A DNA stretch of 64,000 nt from Pyrocephalus nanus (taxonomy: Eukaryota > Chordata > Aves > Passeriformes > Tyrannidae), in the NCBI GenBank assembly GCA_038380795.1, contig CM076277.1, forward strand, positions 2,757,501 through 2,821,500. The letters are read 5' to 3'. The stretch's first letter is position 1. Each line of letters opens with the position of its first letter. Below the pieces are notes generated by a model. That model had not been told where the DNA came from. It saw nothing but the letters and a program-made list of their open reading frames with translations, and did not search any database. Shown in pieces: positions 9,871 to 64,000 of this stretch. The translations under genes were made by a program, and so were the position numbers.

Positions 9871-11621
9871 GCAAAGCCAACAGGGAGAGCTTTCCATGTC
9901 CCATCGTCCCCACCTCCCTTGGCAAACCTGCCCTGCTAAGTAACAAAGAAACCTGCACCAGGCCCCTCAGTGCCAGCGTTCCTTTTTCAAAGAGAAATAA
10001 AAAAATGGGAAAACACATTCTGAAGTAGCTGTTTGCAGTCCCTTTGGCAGGTGCTTTGAAGGCAGAATGCAGAAGGTTAATGAGCTCTGGCACTGGTGCA
10101 GCCCTGCTCCGAGGGATCCTGCCTCGTGCAGGGATAATGAGAAGTGCCCGGGGTCATCTGGAAAGGCAAAGCTGTCCGTGTGATCCTGCACCTGGATGCC
10201 AGCAAAGATTGCTCTGTGGGCAGTGCTGAGCATCACTGCAGTGAGGGGAGGAGGGAGCAGCCTGGGAACTCTGCTGTCTGATGTTTCTCGTGCCTTAAAA
10301 CTCTTTTTGTTCCATAAATTAGGCTTTCACTGAGGAAATGAAAGGGGATGCGTTATAATTCTGAAGTCTCTGCCACTCAGAAGTGATTGCCAGGAAGCCA
10401 AAGTGTCTTTGAGAGGGGCTGAGAGACCAAGGCTGGGGGAGAGGACACCTGGAGGAGGCAGTGAGTGTGTCACTGTCACTGAGACCATCAGGTCCCATGT
10501 GTGGAGGTGCTGGCACTGGCTCCTGGAGTGATGGGGACATTTGGAGTCCAGTACAGGCTCAGGGATGTGTCACAAACTGCCCAAGCCCTCTCACAGCTGC
10601 TCTGAGTTCAGGGCAAGTTTTGGGCTGCAGGGGAGTCCCAGAAGGCTCTGTGTAATGAGTGTCTCTCCCTGGGTCTGTGCCCTGGAGATGAGGTGAGTCA
10701 GGATGCCATGGATGATGCCATGGATGATGCCATGGATGGTGCCAAGGATGGCTGTAGGAAGACAGGTGTGTCCCCATTTCTCTAATCCTGTGATTTTCGT
10801 GAATATCACTTATTTTAAATTTTCAAGTATAATGCAAAGGGAATTCTTGAGGAAGGTTCTGTTTGGTGCATCCCAGTCAGAGGTAATAGTGGTGAACAGA
10901 CAAGGACTGCTTCATAGGGAAAAAAACAAGAGTGAAAGCAGCCTAGGCCTGAGCTGGAAATAGTCTGGGCTGGTTGCAGCCTGCAGCCAGGACCCAGGGC
11001 AGAGCAAAGCTCTGCCTCATCACAGCCTGGTGCTTGTGCATGAGGCATTCTCATGTCCACTGGCTATTCCCAAACATGATGTGCTGAGGGAAAGAGGGAA
11101 AGACAAGCAGGGTGAGCCTGGGGAGCGCTCTGCCCACATCAGCCCTTCCCTGCTCTCCTGTCAGGAGTTATTTACCTGGGTGGACTGCACAGCCCTGAGT
11201 ATTTTGGCAGCTGAGCCCAGACAAATGCTGTGGGCTGGGAGCACCAAGAGCAGCAGTGGCAGCCACACAGATGACAGCTGTGTCATTTTGAGGCAGCCCA
11301 GGGGAGGTGGGAGAGCACAAACCCACCCCAGGTGTCTGTACAGCTGCAGGGCTGCAGGCAGGGAGGCTCAAACACAGGAGCAGAGCCCATCCTTTTCTGC
11401 AGGTGGAAGGGTGTTGTCTCAAGCTGTGGCTCCATTGCTGGTGCAAAGATCCAGCTGAAGTGGATAAATATGACTTTTGCTCTCTTCTCTCCACACTTTC
11501 CCTCAGATCCTCTGCCCATCCGTCCAGCACACAGATGAGGGCAGCCCTGACTTCAGGAAACCCAAACCCCAGTGCTGCTGTGGGTTACACAGGGATGGAT
11601 CCCAGTTCCCTGGACTGCAGA
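9871..11621. other. Unique sequence with one small minisatellite
   Basis: Apart from the 12-bp array at 10705-10752 I recognise nothing. Open frames up to 142 codons lack domains. Confidence 0.55.
10705..10752. repeat. 12-bp minisatellite, 4 copies
   Basis: Four tandem units of GCCATGGATGAT; the third ends GGT and the fourth reads GCCAAGGATGGC. The unit length is a multiple of three, so it stays open in several frames and produces spurious repeats of Pro-Trp-Met-Met. Confidence 0.9.
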
Positions 11622-12922: not shown

Positions 12923-13242
12923 GAGAAGAGAAAAAAGAGAAGAAAAAAGAGAAGAAAAAAGAGGAGAGGAGAGGAGAGGAGAGGAGAGGAGAGGAGAGGA
13001 GAGGAGAGGAGAGGAGAGGAGAGGAGAGGAGAGGAGAGGAGAGGAGAGGAGAGGAGAGGAGAGGAGAGGAGAGGAGAGGAGAGGAGAGGAGAGGAGAGGA
13101 GAGGAGAGGAGAGGAGAGGAGAGGAGAGGAGAGGAGAGGAGAGGAGAGGAGAGGAGAGGAGAGGAGAGGAGAGAAGAGAAGAGAAGAGAAGAGAAGAGAA
13201 GAGAGAAGAGGGGAGGGGAGGGGAGGGGAGGGGAGAGAAAGG
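12923..13242. repeat. 320-bp uninterrupted polypurine tract, mainly (GAGGA)42
   Basis: Every plus-strand base from 12923 to 13242 is A or G. It starts as GAGAAGAAAAAA-type units, then has 42 perfect GAGGA pentamers (12961-13170), six GAGAA (13171-13200) and a GGGGA block (13210-13234). Long homopurine mirror-repeat DNA can form intramolecular triplexes (established for R.Y tracts). The lack of T on one strand, and of A on most of the other, removes stop codons, so long open frames appear on both strands here and must not be read as genes. Confidence 0.98.
13210..13234 (+). other. G-quadruplex motif: five GGGG runs with 1-base loops
   Basis: GGGG runs at 13210, 13215, 13220, 13225 and 13230, each separated by a single A. 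Four-guanine tracts with one-nucleotide loops are the type known to give very stable parallel quadruplexes. It sits at the 3' edge of the polypurine tract. Confidence 0.85.
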
Positions 13243-57989: not shown

Positions 57990-58140
57990 TAATAGCTGTC
58001 ACATTTACATGAGCTTTTCATCCCAGGAGATTTCAAAGCACTCTACAAATCCTGAACTCGCATCTCTAAAGAGGAAACATGGCCCAACGCCCACTTGCCT
58101 TTTGCTCAGGAAATCTGCATTTAATTCCCCCTTTCACCAC
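57990..58140 (+). mobile_element. CORE-SINE/MIR-like relic (probable)
   Basis: TTACATGAGCTTTTCATCCC then GAGATTTCAAAGCACTCTAC, then AGAGGAAACATGGCCCAACG, CCCACTTGCCTTTTGCTC and GGAAATCTGCATTTAATTCC. This order fits the amniote-wide pattern 'ttttcatcc.. gatctcaaagcgctttacaaa .. gaggaaactgaggca .. cttgcccaaggtca .. aattgaaccc'. It is highly diverged, as expected of an ancient SINE. I am fairly sure of the family type but not of the subfamily. Confidence 0.5.
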
Positions 58141-58290
58141 AGCCTTCCAGCACAATCCCTCACAAGTCTTTTCCAATGCTGCTACAAAACAAGGAAAAAA
58201 ACTGTGTGCTCCTTCTGCAGGGTGGAGAGGGGGGAGAGACACCACGGTGGCTGCAGGGTGGGAAGGGTCAAATCCAGGAGCTGAGGCAGT

Positions 58291-58397
58291 GATGGGGCTT
58301 GGAGCAAGCTGGGTTAGTGGAAGGTGTCCCTGCCCACAGCACCTGGATGGAACAACACAATCTTTAGGTCCCTTCCAACCCAAACTGTTCTGTGAAT
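58291..58397 (+). mobile_element. CR1 LINE terminal fragment
   Basis: Sense: GGAGCAAGCTGGGTTAGTGG, AAGGTGTCCCTGCCCACAGC and TAGGTCCCTTCCAACCCAAA, then TGTTCTGTGAATG. Confidence 0.93.
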
Positions 58398-61300
58398 GTG
58401 GAAGATGTTCATTTAGACCACGATGAGCTCTTAGGATGAGAATCAACTCTCCTGACTGGCTCTTCTAGAAGTCAGATGCTGACTCAGCTGGTCACCTGGG
58501 CTGAAGCCCTTTGATAAAATTATTGGGATGCCAGAGGAAAGGATCAGTTCCACCTGCCTGCCTGAAATGGGAGAGATGTCCCACTGGATTTTAAAGGAAC
58601 CTAAGAGGGAAGAATGTGGATTTTGGCCTTGCAGCTATTCACAATATAAAGCTTCTCCCCATGGAAGTCCCAGCAGTGGATTCTGAGCTGTTGGCACTTT
58701 GATTTTCAGCAGCAAAGCCAAGTGATGATGATAATAATAACCACAGGGATGAGCCCTGAGTATTTCCAGGAGGATGGAGGCACCTGCCAGAGAGCCAGGG
58801 AGGAAGGAAGCAAAGGGATGACAGCCAAATACCAACCATGTGGCACAGATGGCCAAAAATATGGCTCATTCCTAATGGCTTCTGGTGCATTTAGGAGAAA
58901 CTCTGTGCGTATGGAACTCCAGAGCTGTCCAAAGGCAGAACCTGCACAGGAAAATAGGAATGATGACAGCAAGAGGCTTGGATGAGGCTGTCAGGGTTAT
59001 TGTTGGCCCCTCCTGGCCACTGCAGCCTGTGGCTAGGAGAGATTTCATTAAAAATCTAAATAAAGGCTCCCAAATAAAACTAAGGCTTCTATTCCCTGTA
59101 CAATAACTACATTCTGCATGTCTGTAAGGAGCAAGGAATCGTGTTTTTATTTATTTTTCCCTTTCCCTTGAGCTTCATGTAAGATTGCAAACCAGGCAAA
59201 GCAGCATCAGCATGGACAAGACTGTGCTGAAATAAATCCATTTTTCTTCTGGCACCCCCCATATTTGTTTGGCATCCTGGTCTATTCTTTTTGATTTTTT
59301 TTTTCAGAGTTTCAGTGGACATAAAACTCAATTCAACCCTTCTTAATTTATATTCGCCTCAGTTTGTGCCATTTGAAGAATAGTTTTCACATTCTAAGTA
59401 GACCAGATAATAATTAATAGAGTAGATAATTGCACCATCAAGCCAGTCATTTTGCAAGGGTGAGGATGTGCCACTTTAATATTTTAAAACTTCCCAGATT
59501 GTTTCAGACATATGGGGATTATATAATATTTACTGTGCCAGGCTGATGAAGGGCCAGGCTTAACTGCAAGTTATTGTAATCATGCCACTGTTTTTATGAG
59601 GACCTGAGAAAATAGGCATTATAAAGAAATATTGACAGATTAAATAGATTCTATGATGGGAACTGGGAAATTGCTCCATTAAAGCGTGTGTGTGTGTTAC
59701 AACATTAGGCAATTATTAAATTAACAGATGGCAGAGGCTTCTCAGAGCTCTGGAAATGGATCCCAGCAGCATCCAAGTGATAAAGGGAAAGTCATATGCT
59801 AATGTAGGCTGGAATCTGAATCCCCCTCTCAATCACTGGCACGTGGGGATTCAGGGGATTAAAGTGATTCATTGATCTCCCAGCAGCAATAACAGCGATG
59901 AATCACCCAGTGATGCAAATCTGTGTGTTCCCCCACTCCCCCCAGGTAAGAGTAAATTGGTCCCCAAAAGGTGATTCCCCAACTAGCAGAGGAAAAATAG
60001 TGAGGGAAGAGAGGGGAGCCAGAGAAAGTTGACTCACCAAACAGGATGTCAGGTCTTGGAGTCTGGGAGTGCTCACCTGGGACACAGCAAAGCACAGCTC
60101 CCCCCTCTCCTGTCCTGGAGGGATCCCAATCACACTCTGCACCTCCCCAATTCCAAAGCACTGGTCTGGAAGAAGCATTTTGCATCTCTTGTTCCTTACT
60201 CTGTTCCCCTTGCTTGAGGGATTAAATCCCACTGGAGCAAAGACTGTAATGCTGGGGAACCATCACACCCCGAAATCTGCTGAGCAGCACATCCCTGCTG
60301 GCAGCAGGCGGGTGGAAACCTCCTGGGAAGGGGTGGTTGGAAGAGTCCTGTGGCAACTGAGACACATCCCTGTCCCTGCTCTGGACAGGGATGAGATTGA
60401 GCAGGATTTTGACCCCGGGGCTGAGCCCTGTGCCCTCCAGGACAGGAGCTCTGAGCTCCTTGCCCTTGGCATTTTTCTCATCAGTGAGGATTTTTTAAGC
60501 CCTCGTTAATTCCGAGAGCAAAAGTCTGAGAAAGGCTCATTAGCCTGGAGGTAGGAACAGGGCTTGGGAAGTACCTTTGCTTCAGGGAACACTTAATTGT
60601 TTATACAAAGCTTCACAGTGCTGAAAAGGCCAAATTTACCGTGGAGGCATCCAGGCTGTCTCCTTGGACTGCCAGTGGGCAGAGCACTTTCCTGGGCAGA
60701 TGATTGATCCCTTAAATCCCCTGAAGCAGAAAGAAAATTCAGATGACACCAACTTCCCTGAGCAGTTTGTAACCCCAGGCCTACATTTCCAGCATGGAAA
60801 GTTTTGCATTAAATGGAAAACTGTGCATGGAGCCACAGGAAATATTTAAGAGTTGGACTTCTGAAGGTGGAGATTTAGTGTTGTTCCAGCTCTCCAAAGT
60901 TCTTTGAGAAAGTTTGGATTTGGCTGTCACATGGAATAATAAATCAATCATTCCCACCATTTTAGCAATTGCCCCCTTTTTAGATTTAATTCATCAGAAT
61001 TGGAACCCTGGAGTTCAATTCAAACACAAGGTAGCTGCTTCATTGTTCTGGACCTCTTAGTGTCCAGTAATTTCCAACACCATAAAATACAAGTAAAATT
61101 CCCTTTTTTGCAATTCTTTTTGCCCCTGCTGGCAAGGTCTGCTCTGCACACAGAGCTCCCGTGGGTGGCAACAGGGAACACGTCACTGACCTGCAGTAAT
61201 TGTTTGTTTTTAGGAATTAAATAGGCAATGAGTGGTTGGTGGGTTTTGTGCAGGTCATCAAACGTCTCAAAAGCAGCCTGGAGAGAAAGGTTAACTTTCA

Positions 61301-61489
61301 GAAATGTTTCACACAGGTAATAATAAGAATTCAGATGTATTTGAGCTGCAAAAGGGGACACATCTTTGTGGGCTCAGGAATCTGCTGCCTGAGAGCAAGA
61401 ACAGCTGAACTGGAGGATATCACAGACTATCAAAGAAAATCCTTTAACAGCATCACTGAGCACGCACAGGGAAATAAATGTTAGAATTA
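58398..61489. other. Unique sequence, about 3.1 kb
   Basis: Short GAT/AAT triplets at 58722-58740 and (GT)6 near 59685. No gene recognised. The part at 59340-59760 is listed separately. Confidence 0.5.
59340..59760. promoter_or_regulatory. Candidate conserved noncoding element, AT-rich
   Basis: Repeat-free AT-rich DNA with GATAATAATTAATAGAG, AGATAATTGC, GGCAATTATTAAATTAAC and TTTTTATGAGG words, and almost no CpG. Such composition is common in conserved enhancers of gene deserts, but this is not proof. Confidence 0.25.
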
Positions 61490-61503
61490 AAATCATAAAA
61501 TGC

Positions 61504-61740
61504 AATCATAGAATGTCCTGAGTTTGAAGGGACACACAAGGAACATCCAGTCACAGCACAGACACCCCAACAACCCCACCCTGTCCCTCAGAGCATCATC
61601 CAAACCCTCCTGCAGCTCTGGCAGCCTTGGGGCCGTGCCCACTGCCCTGGGGAGCCTGTTCAGTGCCAACCACCCTCTGGGGGAAGAACCTTTCCCTGAG
61701 ATCCACCCTGAGCCTGCCCTGACACAGCTCCAGGCCATTA
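61504..61740 (-). mobile_element. CR1 LINE 3' end, same subfamily as 13795-14059
   Basis: AATCATAGAATGTCCTGAG tail, CACAGACACCCCAACAACCC, GCCGTGCCCACTGCCCTGGG and GATCCACCCTGAGCCTGCCC, stopping at CAGCTCCAGGCCATT. Confidence 0.95.
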
Positions 61741-62341
61741 ATATCTTATCCCTGTGTATTAAATTAGATCTCCTGATTTAAAGATGAGCCATAGCTTGGT
61801 TTGAAACTCTTTCACTCTCCCAGGCAGTGACAGGGGATGTATTATCTGTGGAGAATGATATGGAAAACAAAGACACTTGGGATATTTAGGAGCCAAAGTC
61901 CTGTTTCAGTGGTGACATGGAAACTCAGGCACACCAAGGGCCAGGTTCCCAAAGGCATTTGGGGGTCCAGAGATGCAGAGGGACTCGGGTTGGTCAGAAG
62001 CCACTGGGGAAAAGGATGCTTTTAAATCCAGTTGCAATAGGTGTGGAAAAGCAGAGGTCCAGGTCAGAGATGTCAGCCTGTGATCTGAGAGCTGTGGGGA
62101 GGAGAGGGCATGTGAGGAGCTGTGAGCCAGTTTAAAGGAGTCCAAAGTGACTTAGGAAATGACTTTCACCCAGCAGCACAGTCCACGGCACTGGCTTTCA
62201 AAGTGTTTGCATCTCTACCCAGAGCTAAAGTAGAATCCACAGGCTGAAGATGTTTGAAAACTTCTGGTCCAGCCCATTTGGAAGCCTCAGATTGCAGCAA
62301 GAAGGGCAAAACAACTGTAATGATCCTCCTCTCCCAAAGAA
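61741..62341. other. Unique sequence, possible faint ancient repeat
   Basis: At 61938-62020, GGGCCAGGTTCCCAAAGGC and a following GATGCAGAGGGACTC resemble an amniote interspersed repeat of the 'gggccagattctcaaaggtatttaggca' type. Too diverged to call. Confidence 0.4.
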
Positions 62342-62905
62342 ATCAGTTATGCTTCCAGAGAAAGCAACAAAATTGAATTGGGCATTATGAAAAATTCTCT
62401 GTGTAGCTGCAACTACAACCTAGATAATTCACTTAGGCTAAATATATGACTGTAATTGAAAAATCCAAATAAGGTATGCATATGCATTGATCCATATGAT
62501 TTAAATCAAGCCATAAAACATCAACATTATCCAGCAAAAGCTGCTGGAGAAACGGCAGCCAAGCAGAATATGAAATTCCAGGGAGACCATTGCACTGGCT
62601 GGGAGGAGGACTTAATTGATTTTGACAAAGAAACCTATTTGCTGTTTAATTGATTCCTACTCTAAATTCACAGCACTTTCAGACCTAGCAGAGAGGAGCA
62701 GCAGAATAGTGATTACCCAGAGCAAATTACAGCTGGCCAGGTCCAGAATCCTTCAGGTCCTGGTAATTCTCTATTTACCAAATTACTGCTGTGGATTTTC
62801 AGAGAAACACTGAAGTGCGCTCGTACAAGCACACAAATCACTCAGAGCTACGGGATGATTGAAAGAGCTATTCAGGCCCCCAGAAGGACCTCAGGGAAGC
62901 AGTAA
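62342..62905 (+). mobile_element. Ty3/Gypsy-like retrotransposon pol relic: reverse transcriptase and integrase pieces
   Basis: Three protein-level blocks read on the plus strand. (1) RT: ELGIM (62375-62389), then two stops (TGA 62447, TAA 62453), then CICIDPYDLNQAIKHQHYP (62477-62533), which matches the 'R-C-DP-DLN-AI--EHYP' finger block of Ty3/Gypsy RTs. (2) Integrase core: DLIDFDKETYLL (62609-62644), which holds the first catalytic Asp position; a +1 shift at 62645-62648; then IDSYSKF (62649-62669), SSRIVITQSK (62697-62726) and ARSRILQVLV (62736-62765), matching '-DL----YLLVVDYYSKF-S--VI--K--FARHGIP-V'. The second catalytic Asp motif (SDNG) is lost. (3) QSYGMIERAIQ (62843-62875), matching 'QSNG--ERA-Q' with the catalytic Glu at 62861. 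The order RT then integrase is normal, but the RT palm (with the YxDD box) and RNase H that should lie between are absent. It is dead: stops, shifts and missing catalytic parts. No LTRs were found. Confidence 0.8.
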
Positions 62906-63339
62906 ACATCCTCACTTTATTCCAAAAGTGTCCACGCTCTTCTGCACCTCGTTTAGGTTGGGGGGGCTGGGTTTGCTGGGAAGGAGGAGTCACAAATTGT
63001 GCCAGGGTTGTTAAAGCCCCACATCTGGGTACAGTTGTGTAACCCCAAATTACACTGGAGACCACAGGGCTGCCCTCCTCACATCCCTGGGGCCTTCCCA
63101 GGGACTTCCCAGGCATCACTGAGCCTTCAACTTCACTTCAGAGAGGGGGTGAGAATGATTTTCTCCCCATCTTAAAACAGAGATTCAACCCTTGCAAGTC
63201 AGGTACTCCCTCACACAGGTGTCCTTTTAGACAGTGATGGTGTGGAGGTGCAAACATCATCAGTGGAAATGGGAAAAAGGCCTCAGAAATTGCCAAGGAT
63301 CTCAGAAATGGGAAGAGATCAGAAATGGATAAAAGATCT
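62906..63339. other. Unique sequence
   Basis: Nothing recognised after the Gypsy relic; no LTR or gag/env-type remnant is seen. Confidence 0.5.
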
Positions 63340-63666
63340 CAGAATTCTGCTCTCTACAACTTCCTGAAAAGAAGGTTGTGCTGAGTGGGGGGTCATCCTC
63401 TTCCCCAGGCAGCAAAAGGACTGGGGAAAATGGCCTCAAGCTGCACCAGAGGAGGCTCAGGTTGGATATTAGGAAAAGTTTATTCCCTGGAAGAGTGGTT
63501 AAGCATTGGAACAGGCTGCCCAGGGCAATGGTGGAGTCACCAGCCCTGAAAGGTTCAAAAAGGGAGTGGATTTCACAACATGGTTTAGTGGCCATGGTGG
63601 TGTTCTTAGTCAAAGCTTGGGCTCGATGATCTTGGAGGCCTTTTCCAACCTTAAAGATTCTGGGGT
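63340..63666 (+). mobile_element. CR1 LINE 3' end
   Basis: Sense: GGCCTCAAGCTGCACCAGAG, GGTTGGATATTAGGAAAAG, CATTGGAACAGGCTGCCCAG, GGGCTCGATGATCTTGGAGG and CTTTTCCAACCTTAAAGATTC. The octamer tail is degraded to GATTCTGGG. Confidence 0.94.
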
Positions 63667-64000
63667 TGCCAGGATCACCAGGAATGCACAGTCAGGCTCC
63701 TGTGCTGGGGCTCTGCTCCCTCCAGGAGCAACGAGGATGCTCCATCCCTCCTCCTGACCCCAGCCCTGGAAGCACAAAGGAGCACCCACAAGGCATCCCC
63801 TCTCCTGTTTCCCTGGTGTCTCCCTAACAGTGACCGATGGATGGACTCACAGAGAAGATTTTTCAAATTGAAAAATCCCCTCTCGTTCCAGAAATCATCC
63901 TCCCCTGAGCTCAGCCATTTGTCACACGGGGCGAGGCAGAGCTGGCACACTCCTCTTCCCCAGGGTCCATGGAAAGCTGGGATAGAAACATGGCAATTAC
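63667..64000. other. Unique sequence to window end
   Basis: Nothing recognised. Confidence 0.5.

What the first reader, a model, noticed from the sequence alone, without database searches (positions are those of the whole stretch)
62342..62905. Ty3/Gypsy pol fossil in an avian genome
A plus-strand segment still reads reverse-transcriptase and integrase motifs of the Ty3/Gypsy type (CICIDPYDLNQAI; YLL then IDSYSKF; QSYGMIERAIQ with the catalytic Glu). Gypsy elements are not known as active families in birds, so this is an old lineage remnant that has stayed readable at the protein level although its DNA is full of lesions. It may predate birds, or have been kept longer than neutral decay would predict. 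It is the one thing here that CR1 does not explain.
Basis: partly seen in the sequence, partly recalled or inferred. Interest (0 to 1): 0.85.

Follow-up and report, generated by a model that had tools for sequence, protein, structure and literature searches.

The report
Decayed Ty3/Gypsy-type fossil in bird DNA
A roughly 550-base stretch of a bird-like genome carries the worn-out remains of a Ty3/Gypsy-type jumping gene, a kind said to be missing from birds; its damage looks like ordinary decay, so it is a modest genetic fossil and not a preserved gene.

Summary
In detail: the three motifs lie where stated, on the + strand, reverse transcriptase (RT) before integrase (IN), each once in the window. 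In 1000 dinucleotide shuffles the strict RT pattern appears 0 times, the IN Glu pattern 2, the IDSYSKF type 43; patterns are recalled and post hoc. The IN part keeps near-normal D-D-E spacing (51 and 33 codons), first Asp and Glu present, middle Asp now Gly. I put that down to pieces of 13-38 residues in changing frames, but had no Gypsy profile to show it.

Best reading: an internally deleted, neutrally decaying Ty3/Gypsy pol remnant, one copy found by DNA search, between two CR1-type repeats in a 1.07 Gb genome of bird size. RT core, RNase H, IN ends and LTRs were not found. Lesions fit about 0.1-0.2 substitutions per site, so retention beyond neutral decay is unsupported; insertion before birds is neither shown nor excluded. 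Orthologues and clade could not be tested. New member of a known kind; modest interest.

The parts
62325..62438 (+). Tentative: upstream part of the RT (fingers) in another frame, with two in-frame stops; spacing resembles the stretch before RT block 1
   Evidence: reading by eye against recalled Ty3/Gypsy spacing; positions of pieces; no statistical support
62456..62569 (+). RT block 1 remnant in one open frame (motif 62483-62515, CIDPYDLNQAI, followed by HYP)
   Evidence: 0 of 1000 shuffled windows hold the strict pattern; the published universal Ty3-gypsy primer site RMCVDYR (PMC9521199, passage) is at this block (placement recalled)
62570..62605 (+). Junction where the rest of RT, RNase H and the IN zinc-binding region are missing (inferred internal deletion)
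   Evidence: no F/YxDD, LPFG or H2C2 pattern on either strand in 60000-66000; positions
62606..62644 (+). IN core start: first catalytic Asp (62609-62611) and Y-L-L strand
   Evidence: role of the Asp inferred from spacing to the Glu and recalled family layout
62649..62744 (+). IN core middle (IDSYSKF ... ARS) after a frameshift
   Evidence: 7 of 14 residues shared with the L001 rve transposase, BLASTP E 0.025 for that single pair
62762..62788 (+). Position of the second catalytic Asp, now Gly (GNSLFTKLL), after a second frameshift
   Evidence: 51 codons after first Asp and 33 before Glu; alignment by eye to recalled motif
62831..62875 (+). IN core end with catalytic Glu at 62861-62863 (QSYGMIERAIQ)
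   Evidence: 2 of 1000 shuffled windows hold the strict pattern
61500..61741 (-). Left flanking interspersed repeat, CR1-type (name and orientation recalled); 80-89% identical to its 4 best other copies in the window, so fairly young
63345..63684 (+). Right flanking interspersed repeat, CR1-type (name and orientation recalled); about 61-79% identical to the 18 other matches listed, so older

Best explanation
A dead remnant of a Ty3/Gypsy-type LTR retrotransposon pol gene, found once in this genome. An element once inserted by reverse transcription and integrase-mediated joining (inferred from family knowledge). The copy then lost most of its length: a deletion brought RT block 1 next to the integrase core, and gag, protease, most of RT, RNase H, the integrase ends and both LTRs are gone (not found in the scanned stretch; order and cause of the losses are inferred). 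What is left is decaying by point mutation and small indels without detectable constraint, between two CR1-type repeats. It most likely does nothing now.
For: Three pol motifs, one strand, canonical RT-IN order, 0/2/43 strict matches in 1000 shuffled windows. D-to-E layout of 51 and 33 codons net, against 59 and 36 in the rve transposase of L001 and about 53 and 36 recalled for Ty3/Gypsy. The IN core of L001 aligns collinearly to 62636-62884, the best place on either strand at frameshift penalty 8 (not significant, see against). AT-rich block (40.7% GC against 48.4% for the window). No second copy by DNA search or with the RT piece as protein. Lesions, by eye 4 stops and about 4 frameshifts over about 170 codons, fit neutral simulation at K 0.1-0.2. 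Host genome 1.07 Gb.
Against: No Pfam RVT_1/rve hit to any piece, no relevant PDB hit, no protein-database hit, only an irrelevant weak NCBIfam line. Frameshift-tolerant score against L001: 46 at penalty 8 (next best place 45), 41 at penalty 10 (best elsewhere 43; tied with three other places), 34 at penalty 14 (best elsewhere 43); 120 shuffled windows at penalty 10 gave best scores of mean 43.5, sd 4.5, max 60, so that test shows nothing by itself. BLASTP of the Glu-bearing piece with L001 finds no match at the Glu. Motif patterns are recalled and post hoc. No LTR, protease, YxDD or zinc-binding motif.
Confidence: 0.87

Rival explanations
1. Chance: the peptides are random look-alikes in noncoding DNA picked out by a motif-hunting reader.
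For: Profile and database searches are negative; frame-tolerant alignment not significant; patterns are post hoc.
Against: 0, 2 and 43 strict matches in 1000 shuffled windows, yet all three lie within 393 nt, one strand, right order, with D-E spacing near normal.
Confidence: 0.05
2. A remnant of an endogenous retrovirus pol gene, not of a Gypsy element.
For: The PF17921 search lists 41 matches in the same genome (150 of 306 candidates scored), 13 of them of equal score in 1174-aa open frames, which I take to be ERVs without having checked each; ERVs also have RT then IN.
Against: C-I-D-P-x-D-L-N is the Ty3/Gypsy form of RT block 1; retroviruses have another (recalled). DNA search finds no second copy, whereas that ERV-like group is multi-copy.
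Confidence: 0.05
3. A pseudogene piece of a domesticated Gypsy-integrase gene (GIN1, GIN2) or of a Ginger-type DNA transposon.
For: The genome holds candidate genes of that kind (L004 on C20, L005 on C5; names recalled, H2C2 hits); GIN1 and GIN2 are reported in birds (PMC3424704, passages).
Against: Those genes carry no RT block (recalled); here RT block 1 lies directly upstream. BLASTP of the piece 62616-62810 with the L005 exon gives no alignment at E up to 100. The Glu-bearing piece and L004 were not compared.
Confidence: 0.02
4. The segment is a Gypsy remnant kept by selection, as an enhancer or exapted sequence.
For: Three open stretches of 65, 65 and 79 codons overlap the motifs; the firm RT and IN pieces hold no in-frame stop.
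Against: Lesion load fits neutral decay; CpG observed/expected 0.17, close to the window's 0.12; no Pfam domain in 58000-64000 and no RNA family in the window.
Confidence: 0.04

Closest known systems
Ty3/Gypsy LTR retrotransposons (Metaviridae)
   Same: RT block 1 form, RT-before-IN order, D-E spacing, QS-G--ER--Q block around the Glu
   Different: only a few hundred bases left; no LTR, protease, YxDD or zinc-binding motif found; middle Asp lost; clade not assigned
MamGyp and related Gypsy fossils of mammals (Repbase)
   Same: old Gypsy remnants in an amniote group (PMC5753468, passages)
   Different: those are repeat families; here one copy by DNA search; host is bird-like
Crocodilian Gypsy elements
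   Same: same superfamily in the sister group of birds; reported as about 3% of crocodilian genomes (PMC7397244, passage)
   Different: no sequence could be compared here
GIN1/GIN2 domesticated integrase genes
   Same: Gypsy-like integrase, reported in birds (PMC3424704, passages)
   Different: host genes without RT (recalled), conserved

Membership tests
Ty3/Gypsy retrotransposon | RT block 1 (C-x-D-x-x-x-L-N) | tested here: met
   62483-62515; 0 of 1000 shuffles; pattern recalled
Ty3/Gypsy retrotransposon | RT catalytic Y/FxDD | tested here: inconclusive
   absent in 60000-66000, both strands; the segment that would carry it appears deleted
Ty3/Gypsy retrotransposon | IN catalytic D-D35-E triad | tested here: inconclusive
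   first Asp and Glu present, second position is Gly; offsets 51 and 33 codons
Ty3/Gypsy retrotransposon | RT upstream of IN (unlike Ty1/copia and Gmr1) | tested here: met
   motif order on + strand; the other order is recalled, with one reference title seen
Ty3/Gypsy retrotransposon | Significant RVT_1 / rve profile match | tested here: not met
   pieces short and frame-broken, so low power. For this reason I say Gypsy-type remnant, not a proven member
Ty3/Gypsy retrotransposon | Flanking LTRs | tested here: inconclusive
   the only direct repeat at E up to 1 between 4.8 kb upstream and 4.6 kb downstream lies in the left CR1-type repeat, 64% over 115 nt; the ends of the copy are not known
Ty3/Gypsy retrotransposon | Best match to Gypsy in a translated repeat library | not testable with these tools
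   no eukaryotic repeat library; protein database returned nothing
GIN1/GIN2 gene | Integrase without RT, match to the gene | tested here: not met
   RT block directly upstream; one of two IN pieces compared with the L005 exon, no alignment; L004 not compared

The most novel reading that the evidence does not exclude
The lesion load, read at a recalled bird rate near 2e-9 per site per year, points to an insertion roughly 50-100 million years ago, that is inside the bird lineage. If so, a Ty3/Gypsy element of a non-chromoviral animal type (type by recall) was still moving in, or was carried into, birds after they split from crocodiles, contrary to the view that birds lack Gypsy. The single copy found would suit a brief or horizontally acquired invasion.
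Probability: 0.15. Interest if true: 0.6.

Novelty: new member of a known kind. Interest (0 to 1): 0.35.

Why it matters
A review describes birds as lacking Gypsy elements (PMC7397244). A readable remnant would show that such elements left traces in the bird lineage, as MamGyp did in mammals. Its presence or absence at the same site in other birds and in crocodiles would date when Gypsy died out on the way to birds. On its own, one decayed copy changes little.

Tried and rejected
Profile and database routes that gave nothing useful: Pfam, NCBIfam, PDB, protein database with three queries, viral contigs by protein (19 matched 8 stretches, none confirmed) and by degenerate motif, plasmids, phages, Rfam, tRNA scan. 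A genome-contig motif scan found one stretch, a bacterial rve-type transposase (L001, PF00665 E 3.8e-18), which I used as a real reference for spacing and for a frame-tolerant alignment; the alignment was not significant. GIN1/GIN2 and ERV origins were considered and set aside. Paper searches for conserved motif strings found none or only the primer RMCVDYR. I do not claim that no bird Gypsy fossil of this kind is in print; the searches were made, and the gyrfalcon paper lists 15,529 'LTR-RT-Gypsy' entries in its repeat table (PMC9997569, passage), which I could not check for misclassified ERVs.

Full report
What was checked. The window lies at G000:C19:2757501-2821500 (+) of a 1,072,440,100-base genome in 153 contigs. 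Genome size, CpG depletion (0.12 observed/expected) and many CR1-type repeats (name recalled; copies shown) fit a bird; crocodile and turtle genomes are about twice as large (recalled). The species is not known to me.

Observation. Six-frame scanning finds the RT pattern once (62483), the IDSYSKF pattern once (62649) and the Glu pattern once (62843), all on the + strand. In 1000 dinucleotide shuffles of the full window the strict patterns appear 0, 43 and 2 times (loose RT 9, loose Glu 149). If independent, all three in one window would be expected well below 1e-6, before asking for order, strand and closeness. The patterns were recalled and written after I had seen the sequence, so this number is generous.

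Spacing. From the Asp at 62609 to the Gly at 62762 is 51 codons net, and from there to the Glu at 62861 is 33 codons (positions); the L001 bacterial rve transposase has 59 and 36, and Ty3/Gypsy about 53 and 36 (recalled). The retained D and E and the near-normal distances are hard to get from unrelated DNA. The middle Asp position reads Gly; that placement is by eye.

Results against. Pfam listed no RVT_1 or rve in four separate pieces, in two single-frame read-throughs or in the six frames of the last 6 kb. PDB gave two irrelevant syntenin lines or nothing. Three protein-database searches had 23, 2 and 58 candidates, none scoring. A frame-tolerant alignment with the L001 integrase core ranked the segment first at frameshift penalty 8 (46, next 45), tied second on the + strand with three other places at 10 (41, best 43), and lower at 14 (34, best 43); the best scores of 120 shuffled windows at penalty 10 average 43.5. 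BLASTP with L001 matched 14 residues around LIDSYS (E 0.025 for one pair) and nothing at the Glu. The case therefore rests on motifs, order and spacing, not on a profile score. No Gypsy protein could be obtained as a query: DNA motif scans of viral contigs found none and that of genome contigs only L001.

Anatomy. The firm parts are RT block 1 (62456-62569) and the integrase core (62606-62875, in pieces with two frameshifts). Upstream, 62325-62438 may be the stretch before RT block 1, by eye only. Patterns for YxDD, LPFG, protease, CCHC, H2C2 and GPY/F are absent on both strands in 60000-66000, so RT core, RNase H and integrase ends seem to be gone. No LTR pair is seen in a 10 kb stretch around it. 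The segment is AT-rich (40.7% GC) between two CR1-type repeats at 61500-61741 and 63345-63684. A DNA search with 701 bases against the whole genome finds only itself, and the RT piece as protein likewise; the tool scores only the best candidates and skips very common words, so decayed copies could be missed, and the family and pattern searches meant to find them did not complete, apart from PF17921.

Age and constraint. By eye the reading path has 4 stops, all in the tentative upstream part and its link to RT, and about 4 frameshifts, not counting the deletion junction, over about 170 codons. Neutral simulation (random sense codons; 120 runs per point; assumed kappa 4, CpG transitions 8-fold, indels 8% of substitutions and 80% of them frameshifting) gives means of 2.5 stops and 3.4 frameshifts at K 0.1, 4.1 and 6.5 at K 0.2; five or fewer of each occurred in 8% of runs at K 0.3 and in none of 120 at K 0.4. 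So K near 0.1-0.2 suffices, about 50-100 million years at 2e-9 (recalled rate). Recognition favours lesion-poor pieces, and the rate on the bird stem may have been lower, so an older date is not excluded. There is no sign that the segment lasted longer than neutral DNA would.

Literature (passages seen, no whole paper read). A review states that Gypsy is absent in avian and mammalian genomes and puts it at 3% in crocodiles (PMC7397244). Yet mammals do hold Gypsy fossils such as MamGyp (PMC5753468), so 'absent' is loosely meant and a bird trace would be less of a surprise. The chicken LTR study used GyDB references and profiles; the passages seen give no bird Gypsy result (PMC5006616). A gyrfalcon repeat table lists LTR-RT-Gypsy at 0.73% (PMC9997569), a label that may include ERVs.

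Verdict. A Gypsy-type pol fossil, most likely real and dead, one copy found, ordinary in its decay. Modest interest, mainly as a dating marker if orthologues can be found.

Noticed in passing
L003 (G000:C6:68446766-68446933 match), 1223-aa open frame: Strongest Integrase_H2C2 match in the genome lies in a long open pol frame of an ERV-like locus, with a further open frame downstream; resembles the bird gene/ERV OVEX1 (name recalled).
   Followed up: partly
G000:C32:1144446-1285155: Eleven H2C2 matches of equal score in 1174-aa open frames, ERV-like by my reading, 7-17 kb apart on one strand of contig C32, and two more on C35; sequences not compared.
   Followed up: no
L005 (C5) and L004 (C20): Host-gene-like Gypsy-integrase exons, probably GIN1 and GIN2 (names recalled), found by the H2C2 profile.
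   Followed up: partly
window 12960-13237: AGAGG tandem array, about 56 copies, 97% matches.
   Followed up: no
window 10702-10750: 12-base tandem array GATGCCATGGAT, about 4 copies, 94% matches.
   Followed up: no
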